Shown here in pieces: positions 30,617 through 38,618 of a DNA stretch of 62,500 nucleotides. The stretch lies in NCBI RefSeq assembly GCF_000013005.1, contig NC_007722.1:1-62500 (forward strand), in the 5' to 3' direction. Source of the DNA: Erythrobacter litoralis HTCC2594 (GTDB lineage: Bacteria; Pseudomonadota; Alphaproteobacteria; Sphingomonadales; Sphingomonadaceae). The notes beneath the pieces are model-generated. The model ran no database searches. It saw only the letters and a program-made list of their open reading frames with translations, and was not told the origin of the DNA. Position numbers and translations under genes: made by a program. Every line of letters begins with the position of its first letter. The first letter of the stretch is position 1.

Positions 30617-33600
30617 ATGGATGCACCAACAGCGCTCGCCCCGATCCCGCAGCCGCCGGGCAAGCCGATCGTCGGAAACGCCTTCACCGTCGATTCTTCC
30701 CGCCTGATCCAGTCCCTGATGGAACTGGCCGAGGAATACGGCCCGATCTTTCAGCTCGAAGTGATGGGAACGCCGCTGGTGTTCGTCTCCGGCGCGGACA
30801 TGGTGGCGGAGATTTGCGACGAGAGCCGCTTCGACAAGACCGTGCGCGGCCCCCTCAAGCGGCTGCGGCTGATTGCGGGCGACGGGCTGTTCACCGGCGA
30901 CACCGACGATCCCAACTGGGCCAAGGCGCATCATATCCTGCTGCCCTCCTTCAGCCAGAAGGCGATGGGCAGCTACCTGCCGATGATGACCGATATCGCC
31001 AGCCAGCTGATGCTGAAGTGGGAGCGGCTGAATTCGGACGATGTCATCGACGTGCCGATGGACATGGTCCGGCTGACGCTCGACACGATCGGCGTGTGCG
31101 GCTTCGGCTATCGCTTCAATTCCTTCTATCGCGAGGACTTCCACCCTTTTATCGAGGCTTTGAACCGAACGCTCGACACCACGCAGAAGATGCGCGGGCT
31201 TCCGGGCGAGAAGCTGCTCAAGCGTCAGCAGATCGAACAGCTCAACGAAGACGCGGCCTACATGAACAATCTGGTCGACGAGATCATCCGCGAGCGGCGG
31301 CAGACAGGCGAAAGCGGGCAAGGCGACCTGCTCGATTTCATGCTCTCGGGCCGCGACCCGGTGACGGGCGAGCGGCTGTCGGACGAAAACATTCGTTACC
31401 AAATCAACACTTTCCTGATCGCTGGGCACGAGACGACATCGGGCCTGCTGTCCTTCACGCTCTATTACCTGCTCAAGAACCGCGACGTGCTGCAGCGTGC
31501 TTATGCCGAGGTCGACGAAGTGCTGGGGCGCAATATCGACCAGACGCCGACGCTCTCGCAGATCGGCCGCCTGCCTTACATCCGCGCGATCCTGTCCGAA
31601 GCGCTGCGGCTGTGGCCGACCGCTCCGGCGATGGGCCTCGCACCGTTCGAAGACGAAGTGTTGGGCGGGAAGTACGCCATTGCCAAGGGCACTTTCACGA
31701 CTGTCCTGATTCCTTCGCTCCACCGCGACAAGTTGGTGTGGGGCGAGAATCCTGAAGCCTTCAATCCCGATAATTTCAGTCCCAAGGCCGAAGCAGCCCG
31801 TCCACCGCATGCGTACAAACCCTTCGGCAATGGCCAACGCGCCTGCATCGGGCGGCAATTCGCGATCCAGGAATCGATCCTCGTGCTCGGCATGCTGTTG
31901 CAGCGGTTCGAGCTGTTCGATCACGCCGACTATCAGCTCAGGATCAAGGAAACGCTGTCGATCAAGCCCGACGGCTTCACCATCAAGGCGCGGCTGCGCC
32001 ATGATGTCGAGCGGGGCGGGGTGGCAACGGTCGAGCCGGAGTCCAAGACCCCTGACCAAGCCGCTGCCGTCCCTTCCCATGGGACACCGCTCCTGGTCCT
32101 TTACGGCTCCAATCTCGGGTCCAGCGAAGGCTTCGCCCGGGAACTGGCGCAACGCGGTGAGTTCAGCGGTTTCGATGTGACCATGGCGCCGCTCGACGCC
32201 CACGTGGCAAAGCTGCCGACCGATGGCGCGGTGGCCATAGCCTGCGCGTCCTACAACGGCATGCCGCCGGACAATGCCGCCAAGTTCGTCGACTGGCTGG
32301 AGCAGGCCGATGCTGCCGACGCACCACTGTCGAATGTGTCCTACCTCGTCCTCGGCTGCGGCAACAGCGACTGGGCAGCGACCTTCCAGGTCGTGCCACG
32401 CAAGATCGATGCTTTGATGGAGCAGCACGGCGCCGAGCGTCTCGTCCCCGCGGAAGAACTCGACGCTCGCGGTGATCTCGACACACAGTTTCACGATTGG
32501 CTCGACGGCCTGATCCCACAATTGGGCGATGCCTTCGATATCGATCTCGAAAGCGGGTTCGACGCGGTGTTCGAGCCGCTTTACACGGTCGAGATAACCG
32601 ACAGCATAACAGGCAACACTGTCGCCGATCGCGTCGGCGCGCGCGAAGTCGAGGTCGTGGCCAATCGCGAGCTCAAGGACACCAGCAAGGACGAGGGCCG
32701 CTCGACCCGCCATCTCGAAGTCCGCCTGCCCGAGGGCATGGAGTACGAGCCGGGCGATCATCTGTGCGTCGTGCCGGTTAACGATCCTGCCGTTGTGGAC
32801 CGGCTGCTCAAACGCTTCGGCCTTGATCGCGACACTTTTGTCCGCATCGAATCGCGCAGCGATATGCGCGGGCCATTTCCGAGCGGTAGCACCTTCTCCG
32901 TCCTCAACCTCGCGGAAACCGCAGGTGAACTCCAGGCGGTCGCCACGCGCAAGGACATCGCCACGCTGGCGCGCTATTCGGAATGCCCCAACTCGCGCGC
33001 CGCGTTGGAAGCGCTGGCTGCGCCGCCATCGGCTGACGGGACGGATCGCTACACCAGCGAAGTGCTCGAGAAGCGTAGATCGGTGCTCGACATGCTCGAA
33101 GAATTTCCCGCATGCGACGTTCCGCTCGCGGTCTTCCTCGAACTGATACCCTTTCTCAGCCCGCGCTATTATTCGATCTCGTCTGCGCCGGAGGCCAATC
33201 AGGGCCTTTGTTCGATCACAGTGGGGGTTGTCAAAGGTCCGGCGCTGGCAGGCACCGGCGAATTCAAGGGCACCTGCTCCGCCTATTTGGCAGACCTGCC
33301 ACCGGGTGATCGGTTCCGCGCGGTCGTGCGCAAGCCAACGGCCCAATTCCGGTTGCCCGACAATCCGGAAACTCCGGTGATCATGATCGGTCCGGGGACC
33401 GGTGTGGCTCCGTTTCGCGCCTTTCTTCAGCGCCGTGACCATTTGCAAGAAGACGGTGCAGTGCTTGGCGAAGCCATGCTGTTCTTCGGCTGCCGCCACC
33501 CGGACATCGATTACCTCTACCGTGAAGAGCTGGATGACTACGACCAACGCGGCGTCGCGACGGTGCATGCTGCCTTTTCGCGCCACGATGGCTCGCGCAC

Positions 33601-33829
33601 CTATGTGCAGGACCTGATCGCGCGGGAAGCAGACCGGGTGTGGGAGCTCATAGAACAGGACGCGCGCATTTACGTGTGCGGGGATGGCGCCCGGATGGAG
33701 CCCGATGTGCGAAAGGCGTTGATGGCTATCTACGCTGAAAAGAAGAGTAGCGATGAAGCGAGCGCCAAAGCCTGGATCGACGATCTCGTCGCACAGGACC
33801 GCTATCTGCTCGACGTATGGGTCGGCTAG
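30617..33829 (+). CDS. Self-sufficient cytochrome P450-NADPH reductase fusion (CYP102/P450-BM3 type)
   Basis: A 1070-residue fusion enzyme, nearly the length of Bacillus P450-BM3. The heme domain (about 1-470) has the oxygen-activation motif AGHETTSG from residue 269, EALRLWPTAPA, and heme ligand Cys410 in FGNGQRACIG. GDGLFTGDTDDPNW retains the BM3 substrate-channel Phe (Phe87 in BM3). The FMN domain (about 485-640) starts LLVLYGSNLGSSEG; the FAD/NADPH part has RYYSISSAP and GPGTGVAPFRAF. Expected reaction: subterminal hydroxylation of fatty acids or similar chains with NADPH and O2. It follows the receptor gene by 52 bp. A very long reverse-strand frame across it is a codon-bias shadow. Confidence 0.96.
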   Translation: MDAPTALAPIPQPPGKPIVGNAFTVDSSRLIQSLMELAEEYGPIFQLEVMGTPLVFVSGADMVAEICDESRFDKTVRGPLKRLRLIAGDGLFTGDTDDPNWAKAHHILLPSFSQKAMGSYLPMMTDIASQLMLKWERLNSDDVIDVPMDMVRLTLDTIGVCGFGYRFNSFYREDFHPFIEALNRTLDTTQKMRGLPGEKLLKRQQIEQLNEDAAYMNNLVDEIIRERRQTGESGQGDLLDFMLSGRDPVTGERLSDENIRYQINTFLIAGHETTSGLLSFTLYYLLKNRDVLQRAYAEVDEVLGRNIDQTPTLSQIGRLPYIRAILSEALRLWPTAPAMGLAPFEDEVLGGKYAIAKGTFTTVLIPSLHRDKLVWGENPEAFNPDNFSPKAEAARPPHAYKPFGNGQRACIGRQFAIQESILVLGMLLQRFELFDHADYQLRIKETLSIKPDGFTIKARLRHDVERGGVATVEPESKTPDQAAAVPSHGTPLLVLYGSNLGSSEGFARELAQRGEFSGFDVTMAPLDAHVAKLPTDGAVAIACASYNGMPPDNAAKFVDWLEQADAADAPLSNVSYLVLGCGNSDWAATFQVVPRKIDALMEQHGAERLVPAEELDARGDLDTQFHDWLDGLIPQLGDAFDIDLESGFDAVFEPLYTVEITDSITGNTVADRVGAREVEVVANRELKDTSKDEGRSTRHLEVRLPEGMEYEPGDHLCVVPVNDPAVVDRLLKRFGLDRDTFVRIESRSDMRGPFPSGSTFSVLNLAETAGELQAVATRKDIATLARYSECPNSRAALEALAAPPSADGTDRYTSEVLEKRRSVLDMLEEFPACDVPLAVFLELIPFLSPRYYSISSAPEANQGLCSITVGVVKGPALAGTGEFKGTCSAYLADLPPGDRFRAVVRKPTAQFRLPDNPETPVIMIGPGTGVAPFRAFLQRRDHLQEDGAVLGEAMLFFGCRHPDIDYLYREELDDYDQRGVATVHAAFSRHDGSRTYVQDLIAREADRVWELIEQDARIYVCGDGARMEPDVRKALMAIYAEKKSSDEASAKAWIDDLVAQDRYLLDVWVG

Positions 33830-33847: not shown

Positions 33848-33865
33848 AAAGTGGCGGAGACGGAG
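33848..33865. repeat. Distal att core (copy of tRNA-Ser 3' end)
   Basis: AAAGTGGCGGAGACGGAG, identical to 38523-38540. It copies the last bases of the tRNA including the CCA complement. TTATCG precedes both copies, with a short indel between, so homology may extend a little further. Confidence 0.9.
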
Positions 33866-33985: not shown

Positions 33986-34006
33986 TGTGGGCACGATTGT
34001 TGGCAC
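33986..34006. promoter_or_regulatory. Paired 12-bp-spaced repeats, left end (putative integrase arm sites)
   Basis: TGTGGGCAC at 33986-33994 and TGTTGGCAC at 33998-34006 are in the same direction, 12 bp start to start. A matching pair with the same spacing and orientation lies near the other end of the island (38451-38471). Arm-type sites for P4-like integrases are expected in such positions. Confidence 0.6.
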
Positions 34007-34019
34007 TGGAGCGATCATC

Positions 34020-35177
34020 ATGGGCAAACTGACGGCGGTAAAAGCTAAAGCGATCAAAGAGGCGGGGCGCTATAGCGATGGGAACGGGCTTCAACTCGTG
34101 GTCAAAGCCAGCGGTGCCAAATCCTGGATTCTACGAGTTCAGCACGATGGCAAGAGGCGCGATATCGGATTGGGGCCTCTGTCCGAAGTTGGACCCGCAG
34201 AGGCCCGTGAGAAGGCCGTGGAGGCACGGAAGGTAATTCGTGGGGGTGGTGACCCGTCGGGCTTGAAAAGCGGCTCAGGAAGAATCTCTGGCCGTCCTCC
34301 GACCTTTCGCGAGCTGGCGACCAGCTACCATGACGACCACAAGAGTAGCTGGAAAAACGCGAAACATCGCGAACAGTGGCTTTCCACTCTCGACACCTAC
34401 GCCTTTCCAATCTTCGGCGACCAGCCGGTCGATCGTGTGGACAGTCGAGACGTTCTCGATTGCCTCAAGCCGATCTGGAACGCGAAACCGGAGACGGCTC
34501 GCCGTGTCCTACAACGTGTTCTTAGAGTTCTGAATTACGCTCATGGGATGGGGCATCGGGAGCACGAAGCGCCAACGCAGTCCATACGGGCGGCTTTGGG
34601 CAAGCAGCGTTCTCAAGTGAGGCACCATGCGTCGTTGCCCTACGCCGAAATGCCGGAGCTGATGGCAAAGCTAGAGGCCGCATCGGGCGTTGGCGCAATG
34701 GCGCTTCGCTTCGCGATCCTGACTGCCGCGCGATCTGGCGAGGTTCGTGGCGCTCAGTGGAACGAGATGGATTTGGCAAAGAAAACTTGGACGGTTCCGG
34801 CAGAGCGGATGAAGGCTCGCCGCGCACACGCTGTCCCGCTATCGCCAGCCGCGCTCGCCATCTTGGAGGATGCGAAGGGGCTAAGGAAGAAGCCCGAGGG
34901 CTTCGTGTTCCCTAGCAGTCGCGGCATCGCGCTCAGCGACATGACGTTGCTGAAGGCCATCCGCGCTGCGAGCGATCAGAACACCACAGTGCATGGCTGT
35001 CGCACCAGCTTTCGTGTGTGGGCTGCGGAGAAGACCAGCTGTCCAGCCGCCGCTGCCGAGGCAGCGCTTGCGCATACGATACACAACAAGGCTGAAGCGG
35101 CTTATCATCGAACCGATTATCTCGACATACGGCGGCAGCTCATGGCCGATTGGGGGGCGTTCCTTGCTGGCGGGTGA
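34020..35177 (+). CDS. Tyrosine-type site-specific integrase (P4-like, DUF4102 N-terminus)
   Basis: A 385-residue recombinase that should catalyse integration and excision at tRNA-Ser(GCU). The N-terminal arm-binding domain (YSDGNGLQLVVKASGAKSW, GLGPLSEVGPAEAREKA) is typical of P4-type island integrases. The catalytic domain shows the first Arg in TAARSGEVRG, His-x-x-Arg in VHGCRTSFR, and a late LAHTIHNKAEAAYHR segment with the final His and the nucleophile Tyr in AYHR. The ATG at 34020 is preferred; the frame is open from 33987. The gene appears intact, so the island may still move. Confidence 0.95.
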   Translation: MGKLTAVKAKAIKEAGRYSDGNGLQLVVKASGAKSWILRVQHDGKRRDIGLGPLSEVGPAEAREKAVEARKVIRGGGDPSGLKSGSGRISGRPPTFRELATSYHDDHKSSWKNAKHREQWLSTLDTYAFPIFGDQPVDRVDSRDVLDCLKPIWNAKPETARRVLQRVLRVLNYAHGMGHREHEAPTQSIRAALGKQRSQVRHHASLPYAEMPELMAKLEAASGVGAMALRFAILTAARSGEVRGAQWNEMDLAKKTWTVPAERMKARRAHAVPLSPAALAILEDAKGLRKKPEGFVFPSSRGIALSDMTLLKAIRAASDQNTTVHGCRTSFRVWAAEKTSCPAAAAEAALAHTIHNKAEAAYHRTDYLDIRRQLMADWGAFLAGG

Positions 35178-35966: not shown

Positions 35967-36725
35967 ATGTCGAAAGCCAAAAGAGAGACCTCCGATCGGC
36001 GCAAAGCCAGCCGCACTGGTGATTCTCGCACGGCAGAGAAGCCAGCGAAGATGCAAGGGTGCTTTGCGGCCGGAATCATCGCGGCATCGCTGTTCGGATG
36101 CTCGGGCGAGACGAGCCAGGCTGACAATGTTGCAGCGAGTGCCACTGAAACCGCTGCGCCCGATTGGAAAACCCTCCCTGATGGCAGTCGCGGCTATTTC
36201 GTTCAGCGAAAAAACGGATCCGAGACAACAGAGAGGTGTTGGCAAGTCGATGGGCATTGGGATTGTCTTGGCGCTTTCACGCTTGGTCGCTCAGACCCAT
36301 CCAACGGGTCTGCCGAAATGGCGATCGAGGCGGACATCGCCGGTCCGAGCTTCTTTGCATCGCGCGCCTTCAAGAAACGACTGAATGATCCGTTTCCGCA
36401 TGGGGATGAAGATAGTCCAGCGGGGGGATACCGTTGCTACACGGCAGGCAGTGGGTTCCTTAACGAAACGATCTTTGCGGGATCGAAAGATGGAGGGGCG
36501 ACGCTGATGTCTAATGATTCGGCGCCCGGACAGCCTTTTGGCGGAAACCCTTGGTCGGCAGAGTTCGTGAACAAGTTTATGCAAGAAAATGGTGTGACTG
36601 CAGATCGGCCCTACTGGAATTGCTTTCACATTGAGCGATTGATCGCATCTGGAAGTCTAGCGACGTTGGTTACAACAGCGCTCACCTATGAAGGATTGAT
36701 CGGACCAGAATCCGCAATGGAATAA
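35967..36725 (+). CDS. Island-encoded putative lipoprotein of unknown function
   Basis: A 252-residue protein I do not recognise. A charged N-terminal stretch precedes a hydrophobic segment with a lipobox-like end (AAGIIAASLFGC-SGE), suggesting lipid attachment at the Cys. The ATG at 35967 has AGGGG at good spacing; an in-frame ATG at 36051 would give a standard short lipoprotein signal. The mature part has several Cys (RCWQVDGHWDCLG, YRCYTAG, WNCFH) that could form disulfides, fitting a periplasmic location. It is the only plus-strand cargo gene and converges with the membrane-protein gene. Confidence 0.65.
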   Translation: MSKAKRETSDRRKASRTGDSRTAEKPAKMQGCFAAGIIAASLFGCSGETSQADNVAASATETAAPDWKTLPDGSRGYFVQRKNGSETTERCWQVDGHWDCLGAFTLGRSDPSNGSAEMAIEADIAGPSFFASRAFKKRLNDPFPHGDEDSPAGGYRCYTAGSGFLNETIFAGSKDGGATLMSNDSAPGQPFGGNPWSAEFVNKFMQENGVTADRPYWNCFHIERLIASGSLATLVTTALTYEGLIGPESAME

Positions 36726-36812: not shown

Positions 36813-37406
36813 CTACTGGTCTTGCTCGCCCGTCTCCCCAGGATCAGAGATTAGCGCTAGTCTGTAAATCGCCAACGCTGCTCCCACGACGAGCGTGATT
36901 GAGTATACAAGGAGAGTGTAGCCAACAAACGAGCCAACCAGCTTCAAGACTACAAAGCCCCATCCGATAGCTGGCAACGAGGCCTTTGTTGCTGCTGCGA
37001 GATCAGCGAATGCGCTTCCGTCAAAGCCGAACGCCCATACCAACGCGATAACCTGCACGAAGATGAAGTGAAAAAAGGTTGCGTTTACCTGCTCTAATGC
37101 GCTGACATCATCGTCACTTTTCACAGCCCTCATCGCTCCTTTGACGCGAGCGGTTATCAGGCTGAACAGGATGGCATATGTGCCTAAGCTAAAGCCGAGA
37201 AGGCTAGGGACCAAAGCGTAGATCGTGTCGACCCAGTCAGGGTTCAACCACTGTCGATAGCTTGCCGCTGCAATGAGCACGGAGACGAGAAACAGCGGTG
37301 ATCCGAACACGCCGGACCAGCCGCCGTATGCATGGAAATAGCGGCGGATATGTCGCGAGAAAGGTCGGAACTGGCCGGTGAGCTTCACCCTCCTAACCCG
37401 ATCCAT
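36813..37406 (-). CDS. Multi-pass membrane protein, second gene of the DUF4747-like module
   Basis: A 197-residue protein with four or five hydrophobic segments (GSPLFLVSVLIAAASY, ALVPSLLGFSLGTYAILFSLI, FFHFIFVQVIALVWAFGF, and a long C-terminal one from GWGFVVLKLVG to ALAIYRLALI). The basic N-terminus (MDRVRRVKL) is probably cytoplasmic. Its ATG at 37406 lies inside the end of the preceding gene (22-bp overlap), implying translational coupling and a shared job. No family recognised. In a defence reading this would be the membrane-acting effector; that is inference. Confidence 0.75.
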   Translation of the reverse strand: MDRVRRVKLTGQFRPFSRHIRRYFHAYGGWSGVFGSPLFLVSVLIAAASYRQWLNPDWVDTIYALVPSLLGFSLGTYAILFSLITARVKGAMRAVKSDDDVSALEQVNATFFHFIFVQVIALVWAFGFDGSAFADLAAATKASLPAIGWGFVVLKLVGSFVGYTLLVYSITLVVGAALAIYRLALISDPGETGEQDQ

Positions 37407-38254
37407 CGAGGTATTAACCGACGGAAAGCGTTTTGCTCACTCATCTCATCGGGGTCGAATTTGTCGTGAAGCTCAGCGGGCATTTGCTCGGTTGATTTCG
37501 TAACGGCACCTTTCTCGTCACGTCCCCTCACCTCAACCTCTCCGTTCTCGAGCGCGACCTCGCTAACGGCTCGCATTTCATCGGTCGGATTCACAGACTG
37601 ACCGGGATCAGCTTGGTAGGAAAGAGAAATCCGCTGGCTGTTGGTTTGCGCGAGATGAGCCTCAATCTGATTCTCGAAGTCGTCTGCGAAGATGTCAGGG
37701 TTTGGCTTGTAGATTGTGATCTTCACTTCTTTGATCACGGGAAGCGCGAACAGAGCTTCAAGACCGGCTCGGCTCTGGACGATTGTGACATGAACCTTCC
37801 CGTATTCAGCTTGGATTCTTGGAGCGGCGGCAAGGCTTTCAAACAGGGTCTGCGCCTGTCTCGCTGATAAGCTCTTTCCCTCCGAATAGCTTTGGACATA
37901 GAGTCGATGCTTCTCGGTATCGAACTCGAAATAGAAGCTCGCCGCATTCGGGTGAAGGTTTTCAGGTATCTGGACCTTGGCGACTTGAGCCTCGGTCGCA
38001 TCTTGCATTTCAGATGCGTCGAACCAGCGACCATCGAACTCGACCTTCACGAAGGTTGTAATGATGCCTGAGACAAAACCTCGATCATTCGCTTCTTTGT
38101 GAACGAGCGACAGCATTCCAAATCGGTCGCCGTGCAGCTTGACGGCAATTTTTTGCTTGAAAAGATCGGAAACGAGTTGAGCATAACGTTCCGGAGAATG
38201 CGGGTGGGTTCGCACATTCAAGACCGAACTAGATACTTTGATCTTCCGCGCCAC
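37385..38254 (-). CDS. DUF4747-like protein
   Basis: A 289-residue soluble protein. The N-terminus (NVRTHPHSPERYAQLVSDL, KLHGDRFGMLSLV), the middle (VQIPENLHPNAASFYFEF, KHRLYVQSYSEG) and VKITIYKPNPDIFADD match my memory of DUF4747, a family of about 280-330 residues without known function. The GTG start at 38254 follows GGGGA. First gene of a two-gene unit with the overlapping membrane protein, at the tRNA-proximal end of the island, where cargo is often found. Role unknown; anti-phage sensing is a hypothesis from context only. Confidence 0.75.
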   Translation of the reverse strand: MARKIKVSSSVLNVRTHPHSPERYAQLVSDLFKQKIAVKLHGDRFGMLSLVHKEANDRGFVSGIITTFVKVEFDGRWFDASEMQDATEAQVAKVQIPENLHPNAASFYFEFDTEKHRLYVQSYSEGKSLSARQAQTLFESLAAAPRIQAEYGKVHVTIVQSRAGLEALFALPVIKEVKITIYKPNPDIFADDFENQIEAHLAQTNSQRISLSYQADPGQSVNPTDEMRAVSEVALENGEVEVRGRDEKGAVTKSTEQMPAELHDKFDPDEMSEQNAFRRLIPRWIGLGG

Positions 38255-38522: not shown

Positions 38523-38540
38523 AAAGTGGCGGAGACGGAG
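38523..38540. repeat. tRNA-proximal att core
   Basis: The second copy of the 18-bp repeat overlaps the tRNA-Ser 3' end, so insertion leaves an intact tRNA. Confidence 0.9.
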
Positions 38541-38618
38541 GGATTCGAACCCTCGATACCCCGATAGAGGTATGGCTCCTTAGCAGGGAGCTGGTTTCAG
38601 CCACTCACCCACGTCTCC
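38527..38618 (-). tRNA. tRNA-Ser (anticodon GCU)
   Basis: A 92-nt class II tRNA read on the minus strand. The acceptor stem GGAGACG pairs with CGTCTCC. The anticodon loop holds GCT (CTGCTAAG), a long variable arm (ATACCTC TATCG GGGTAT) follows, then GGGTTCGAATCCC as the T arm and an encoded CCA. It serves as the island's attachment site. Confidence 0.97.

What the first reader, a model, noticed from the sequence alone, without database searches (positions are those of the whole stretch)
36813..38254. Overlapping DUF4747-like plus membrane-protein module as island cargo: candidate uncharacterised system
Seen: two minus-strand genes overlap by 22 bp, with a soluble 289-residue DUF4747-like protein first and a 197-residue protein with 4-5 hydrophobic segments second. 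They are cargo of an integrase-bearing tRNA island. Known: compact tRNA islands often carry anti-phage systems, and soluble sensor plus membrane effector is a common abortive-infection layout. Inference: the pair may be a defence or toxin-type unit. I know of no named system with this pair and cannot prove novelty.
Basis: partly seen in the sequence, partly recalled or inferred. Interest (0 to 1): 0.75.

Follow-up and report, generated by a model that had tools for sequence, protein, structure and literature searches.

The report
RexAB-like suicide pair on mobile island
Two neighbouring genes on a small mobile DNA island probably form an alarm-and-membrane-pore pair that stops virus-infected bacteria from making more virus, built like phage lambda's RexAB but with almost no sequence resemblance to it.

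Summary
Both genes, their order and the overlap are real. The 289-aa protein is a clear DUF4747 member (PF15931, 176 bits, cut-off 27). Its partner has four membrane helices and no Pfam family. The island is real: a 4.7-kb insertion between 18-bp repeats at tRNA-Ser(GCT), with integrase, excisionase-like gene and an empty site in a congener.

The genes were inseparable where examined: 57 of 57 loci, 31 distinct sequences, all with DUF4747 first and the membrane gene next. Of 14 genome loci, 9 lie in a prophage, beside a defence gene or near a tRNA.

The DUF4747 model's best PDB matches are RdgC and lambda RexA, though profile comparison with RexA and CarolAnn gp44 finds nothing. Best reading: a RexAB-type abortive-infection pair (cytoplasmic sensor, membrane effector) that PADLOC's RexA/RexB models miss. 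The idea is not wholly new: papers linked DUF4747 weakly to RexA, CarolAnn and Sbash, and a 2026 paper lists a 'DUF4747/CarolAnn prophage system'. This is a divergent bacterial branch on a minimal satellite-like island. Function is inferred, not shown.

The parts
37385..38254 (-). DUF4747 protein, 289 aa, predicted RexA/RdgC-like cytoplasmic sensor
   Evidence: PF15931 E=1.3e-51; phrog_10040 E=1.6e-88; model pLDDT 87; Foldseek best PDB hits RdgC 2owl and lambda RexA 8twq
36813..37406 (-). four-helix membrane protein, 197 aa (191 aa if the GTG at 37388 is the start), predicted effector
   Evidence: 4 hydrophobic segments; model pLDDT 88.7 with four long helices; phrog_20580 E=6e-25; adjacent in 31 of 31 distinct loci
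37385..37406 (-). overlap of the two genes: 22 bp with the ATG start, 4 bp (GTGA) with the GTG start
33848..33865 (.). distal attachment repeat, 18 bp exact
38523..38540 (.). attachment repeat at the tRNA-Ser 3' end
   Evidence: 15 of its 18 bases occur once in the fetched 8-kb empty-site region of a congener
38527..38618 (-). tRNA-Ser (GCT), insertion site
   Evidence: Rfam RF00005 38530-38618
33987..35177 (+). tyrosine integrase, 396 aa, at the tRNA-distal end
   Evidence: PF00589, PF22022, PF13356
35506..35691 (+). HTH_17 / excisionase-family protein, 61 aa
   Evidence: PF12728; TIGR01764 above cut-off
35967..36725 (+). unknown island gene, lipoprotein-like N-terminal region by eye
   Evidence: no Pfam or NCBIfam family up to E=1; 1 weak relative in the 118 other genomes of a 119-genome search

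Best explanation
The pair is a RexAB-type abortive-infection (phage exclusion) unit carried by a minimal integrative element. Shown here: a two-gene unit that is never split in the loci examined, with nearly abutting or overlapping genes; a soluble DUF4747 protein whose predicted fold is closest to RdgC and lambda RexA; a four-helix membrane partner with a basic N terminus and a charged loop between helices 2 and 3; mobile, tRNA or defence contexts for 9 of 14 genome loci. Inferred: the DUF4747 protein, probably a dimer that clamps DNA as RexA and RdgC are thought to do, senses a phage DNA or DNA-protein intermediate; it then contacts the cytoplasmic middle loop of the membrane partner; the partner, probably as an oligomer lined by its conserved polar residues (Asn108, His113, Gln118 on helix 3), opens and depolarises the membrane, so infection aborts.
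Confidence: 0.75

Rival explanations
1. The pair mainly serves its mobile element: the RexA/RdgC-like protein tunes recombination, excision or a lysis-lysogeny decision and the membrane protein only tethers or restrains it; defence is secondary or absent.
For: RexA alone biases the lambda switch and binds DNA non-specifically; in Butters the soluble protein is the active part and the membrane partner dampens it; RdgC is the top structural match; 5 of 14 genome loci lie behind a phage tape-measure gene.
Against: It also occurs on small plasmids and beside chromosomal restriction or Septu genes, where no phage switch was seen; the membrane partner is missing in none of 57 loci and has invariant polar residues in a helix.
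Confidence: 0.12
2. An addiction (toxin-antitoxin) module: the membrane protein is a toxin and the DUF4747 protein its antitoxin, keeping the island in place.
For: Two tightly coupled genes on a mobile element; two small plasmids carry it next to ordinary toxin-antitoxin genes; the membrane effector of the P. putida pair is toxic when activated.
Against: The two plasmids already carry RelE/NadS or BrnT/BrnA; in P. putida the soluble protein activates the membrane protein rather than silencing it, and CarolAnn genes are not toxic singly.
Confidence: 0.08
3. A stress-response or envelope pair unrelated to phages.
For: I saw no tested function for a member of this branch in the passages read; the neighbouring island gene looks like a lipoprotein by eye.
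Against: Rare and patchy (2 of 385, 7 of 398 and 2 of 296 sampled genomes, this one included each time), 9 of 14 genome loci in mobile, tRNA or defence contexts, RexA-like fold.
Confidence: 0.05

Closest known systems
Phage lambda RexA/RexB
   Same: Soluble protein with RexA/RdgC-like fold followed by a four-segment membrane protein on the same strand; similar length of the soluble protein (289 vs 279 aa)
   Different: No sequence match of either protein to PF15969/PF15968, PADLOC RexA/RexB or by profile comparison; the partner is longer (197 vs 144 aa); 15-bp gap in lambda, overlap here; here on an island without structural phage genes
Gordonia phage CarolAnn gp44/gp43 and mycobacteriophage Sbash gp30/gp31
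   Same: Same order, overlapping genes (26 bp in CarolAnn, 22 or 4 bp here), four-segment partner; authors reported a weak DUF4747 match
   Different: Soluble protein 370 vs 289 aa; no Pfam DUF4747 hit for gp44 up to E=10 and no profile match to our family
Pseudomonas putida RexABpp (PP_5643/PP_5644)
   Same: Cytoplasmic RexA-like protein plus four-helix inner-membrane effector from a prophage
   Different: Not compared by sequence here; only passages of the paper were read
RdgC
   Same: Best-ranked structural match of the DUF4747 model
   Different: A bacterial recombination-associated protein (passages); that it has no membrane partner is recalled

Membership tests
Pfam DUF4747 (PF15931) | score above the gathering cut-off over most of the model | tested here: met
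   176 bits vs 27; profile positions 1-253 of 257
RexAB-type exclusion systems (broad kind) | cytoplasmic component with RexA/RdgC-like fold | tested here: met
RexAB-type exclusion systems (broad kind) | four-helix membrane protein encoded immediately downstream | tested here: met
RexAB-type exclusion systems (broad kind) | both genes together exclude phage with loss of membrane potential | not testable with these tools
   needs phage and membrane-potential assays
RexA / RexB sequence families (PF15969, PF15968, PADLOC RexA/RexB) | significant sequence match of both proteins | tested here: not met
   No hit for our proteins; lambda proteins do hit; hhalign E 0.74 and 0.32
CarolAnn gp44/gp43 family | sequence-profile relationship | tested here: not met
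   hhalign E 0.15 and 0.5 to the single proteins, 0.43 to a 25-member gp44 family
tRNA-targeting integrative element | integrase, flanking direct repeats at a tRNA 3' end, empty site in a relative | tested here: met
complete prophage | capsid, terminase or tail genes on the element | tested here: not met
   The five main genes between the repeats gave no structural phage family; smaller ORFs were not scanned

The most novel reading that the evidence does not exclude
DUF4747 plus its four-helix partner is a large, little-recognised branch of RexAB-like immunity in proteobacteria, spread independently of lambda-like switches by prophages, plasmids and minimal satellite-like tRNA islands, and descending from the same RdgC-like DNA clamp; it would show that RexAB is one twig of a general bacterial DNA-clamp-plus-channel immune family.
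Probability: 0.5. Interest if true: 0.65.

Novelty: new variant of a known kind. Interest (0 to 1): 0.5.

Why it matters
RexAB is one of the first described phage-exclusion systems, yet what RexA senses and how RexB acts remain unsettled. A family with 31 distinct, strictly paired, sequence-diverse members found here, in ordinary proteobacteria and often away from a lambda-like switch, gives another genetic setting for that question. It also marks a gap in annotation: PADLOC-DB 2.0.0 (2023), which has RexA and RexB models, does not see this pair; DefenseFinder was not available to test.

Tried and rejected
Sequence links to RexA, RexB, CarolAnn gp44 and gp43 by hhalign and PDB searches gave nothing. 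Structural comparison of the membrane model found chiefly soluble helical bundles in PDB, none convincing, and no BFVD hit below E=0.37; absence of a match is not evidence of a new fold. tblastn of both window proteins and of one distant DUF4747 protein against 50,697 phage records found nothing, although 8 IMG/VR viral contigs carry the pair, a ninth came with the membrane query, and PHROGs hold both families. A distant DUF4747 query found no plasmids, another the same three as before. A cross-check by printed contig length paired 29 of 80 DUF4747 rows with a listed membrane-protein row; the membrane list was cut at 120 of 210 and both searches need shared 5-mers, so I treat it as a lower bound. 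It leaves open that some membrane relatives lack DUF4747; genome searches with the membrane profile found none without it. The MADS mad1 hit of the 61-aa HTH protein is judged a generic HTH match, since the NCBIfam MAD1 model scores 14.3 against a cut-off of 80. In the PADLOC tally of 133 neighbours (85 families, first 25 shown), the DRT hit is judged a family A DNA polymerase and the mad8 hit is a conjugation coupling protein; both were set aside. The RtcR and mad3 hits and the second PtuA and PtuB members were not traced; only PtuA of L004 was confirmed, and a PtuB beside it is assumed from position. Rfam found only the tRNA in the island. Promoter and terminator scans were at about chance level.

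Full report
What is there. The two minus-strand ORFs are at the stated places. The 289-aa product is a full-length DUF4747 protein (PF15931, 176 bits against a cut-off of 27) and matches phrog_10040. The 197-aa product has no Pfam family but matches phrog_20580; it has four hydrophobic segments above 1.5 and a fifth only above 1.2, and four long helices in a confident model (pLDDT 88.7). The 22-bp overlap depends on the start codon: the GTG six codons later gives a 4-bp GTGA overlap and is nearer to what relatives do, whose candidate starts lie mostly from -4 to +6 bp of the DUF4747 stop.

The island. The pair lies between two exact 18-bp repeats, 33848-33865 and 38523-38540; the second covers the 3' end of tRNA-Ser(GCT). 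Between them are a tyrosine integrase, an excisionase-type HTH protein, one unknown gene and the pair. The left flank was found in one of four congeners, G001; there the left flank and the tRNA with its right-hand neighbour lie together, with one copy of 15 of the 18 repeat bases in the 8 kb fetched and no island. The five main genes include no structural phage gene, so it is a minimal integrative, satellite-like element. The tRNA site is a hotspot: integrases 48-50% identical sit at a tRNA-Ser(GCT) in two other genomes with other genes behind them, whose island borders I did not determine; in one of them (G022) it is the same locus, since the right-hand neighbour is 60% identical. Relatives of the integrase elsewhere neighbour a type I restriction system (G005) and a PIN plus HTH gene pair (G009).

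Is the pair a unit? Loci were gathered with DUF4747 as query (plasmids) and with the membrane protein as query. All 57 that were scanned have both genes on one strand, DUF4747 first; 31 remain after removing identical DUF4747 sequences, this one included. Two more membrane-query loci repeat two of them and also have both. Three plasmids have DUF4747 and the same three have the membrane protein. In samples of the window's order PF15931 was found in 2 of 296 genomes and the membrane profile in 2 of 292, the same two. The distance matrices of the two proteins correlate at 0.94 with no permutation of 2000 reaching it; shared descent alone can give this, so it shows that the two travel together, not that they touch.

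Where relatives sit. The family is rare and patchy: 2 of 385 genomes of the class sample, 7 of 398 of the phylum, 2 of 296 of the order, this genome counted each time. Of 14 genome loci, five lie 1.2-3.5 kb downstream of a tape-measure gene on the same strand, that is, in prophages (L007, L009, L011, L012, L014); L004 has Septu PtuA upstream and L003 type IIG/II restriction-modification matches directly downstream; L008, L010 and L014 have a tRNA within 1 kb. That makes 9 of 14; the other five (L005, L006, L013, L015, L016) showed none of these, and no control was run for the prophage and defence contexts. Among distinct loci with full flanks a tRNA lies within 1 kb in 5 of 18 (Ser, Gln, Met, Thr), against 5.1% of 2180 control windows from the long loci; with three short loci counted because a tRNA was seen (this one, L069, L071) it is 8 of 21. 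Two Acinetobacter plasmids carry the pair next to toxin-antitoxin genes.

What is in print. A full-text search for DUF4747 found five papers and one for PF15931 none. In passages, the Sbash, CarolAnn and Butters papers describe a weak DUF4747 match in their soluble proteins and in lambda RexA, with a four-pass membrane partner; the Butters match had E=140. The fifth paper only lists a DUF4747 gene in a Salmonella strain (passages). The EMBO J 2026 paper counts 17 'DUF4747/CarolAnn prophage system' operons behind capK/capS among 443 (passages only). The RexA structure paper (abstract and passages) and the P. putida RexAB paper (passages) supply the mechanism; two further searches on RexAB were used as listings. 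In what I saw, no member of this DUF4747 branch was tested; I did not read these papers whole.

Verdict. I file it as a DUF4747 family member that probably works like RexAB, not as a member of the RexA/RexB sequence families, whose tests it failed.

Noticed in passing
window 35967-36725 (+): Third cargo gene of the island, with a lipoprotein-like N-terminal region by eye; 1 weak relative (E=1.5e-4) in 118 other genomes of the family.
   Followed up: partly
window 33987-35177 and L095, L097: Here the integrase sits at the tRNA-distal end reading inward, whereas related integrases at tRNA-Ser(GCT) in two other genomes sit right beside the tRNA.
   Followed up: no
window 38527-38618; L095, L097: tRNA-Ser(GCT) is a hotspot for this integrase family with different genes behind it; the same locus is used in G022, where a strawberry-notch-type helicase and a Toprim protein follow the integrase.
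   Followed up: partly
BFVD hits A0A8S5S8L2 and A0A8S5S8H0 (phage ctylc9): The same phage gives the second-best structural match to the DUF4747 model and the best, insignificant (E=0.37), match to the membrane model, suggesting a further divergent pair.
   Followed up: no
L040, L041 (Acinetobacter plasmids of about 11 kb): The pair stands beside RelE/NadS or BrnT/BrnA toxin-antitoxin genes on small plasmids.
   Followed up: no
L003 11459-18044; L004 3224-9690: Restriction-modification matches plus a protein that looks like DUF262 by eye in L003, and Septu PtuA in L004, near the pair.
   Followed up: partly
window 30617-33829 (+): Long ORF left of the island that by eye is a cytochrome P450 fused to its reductase (CYP102-like, recalled); no family search was run on it.
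   Followed up: no
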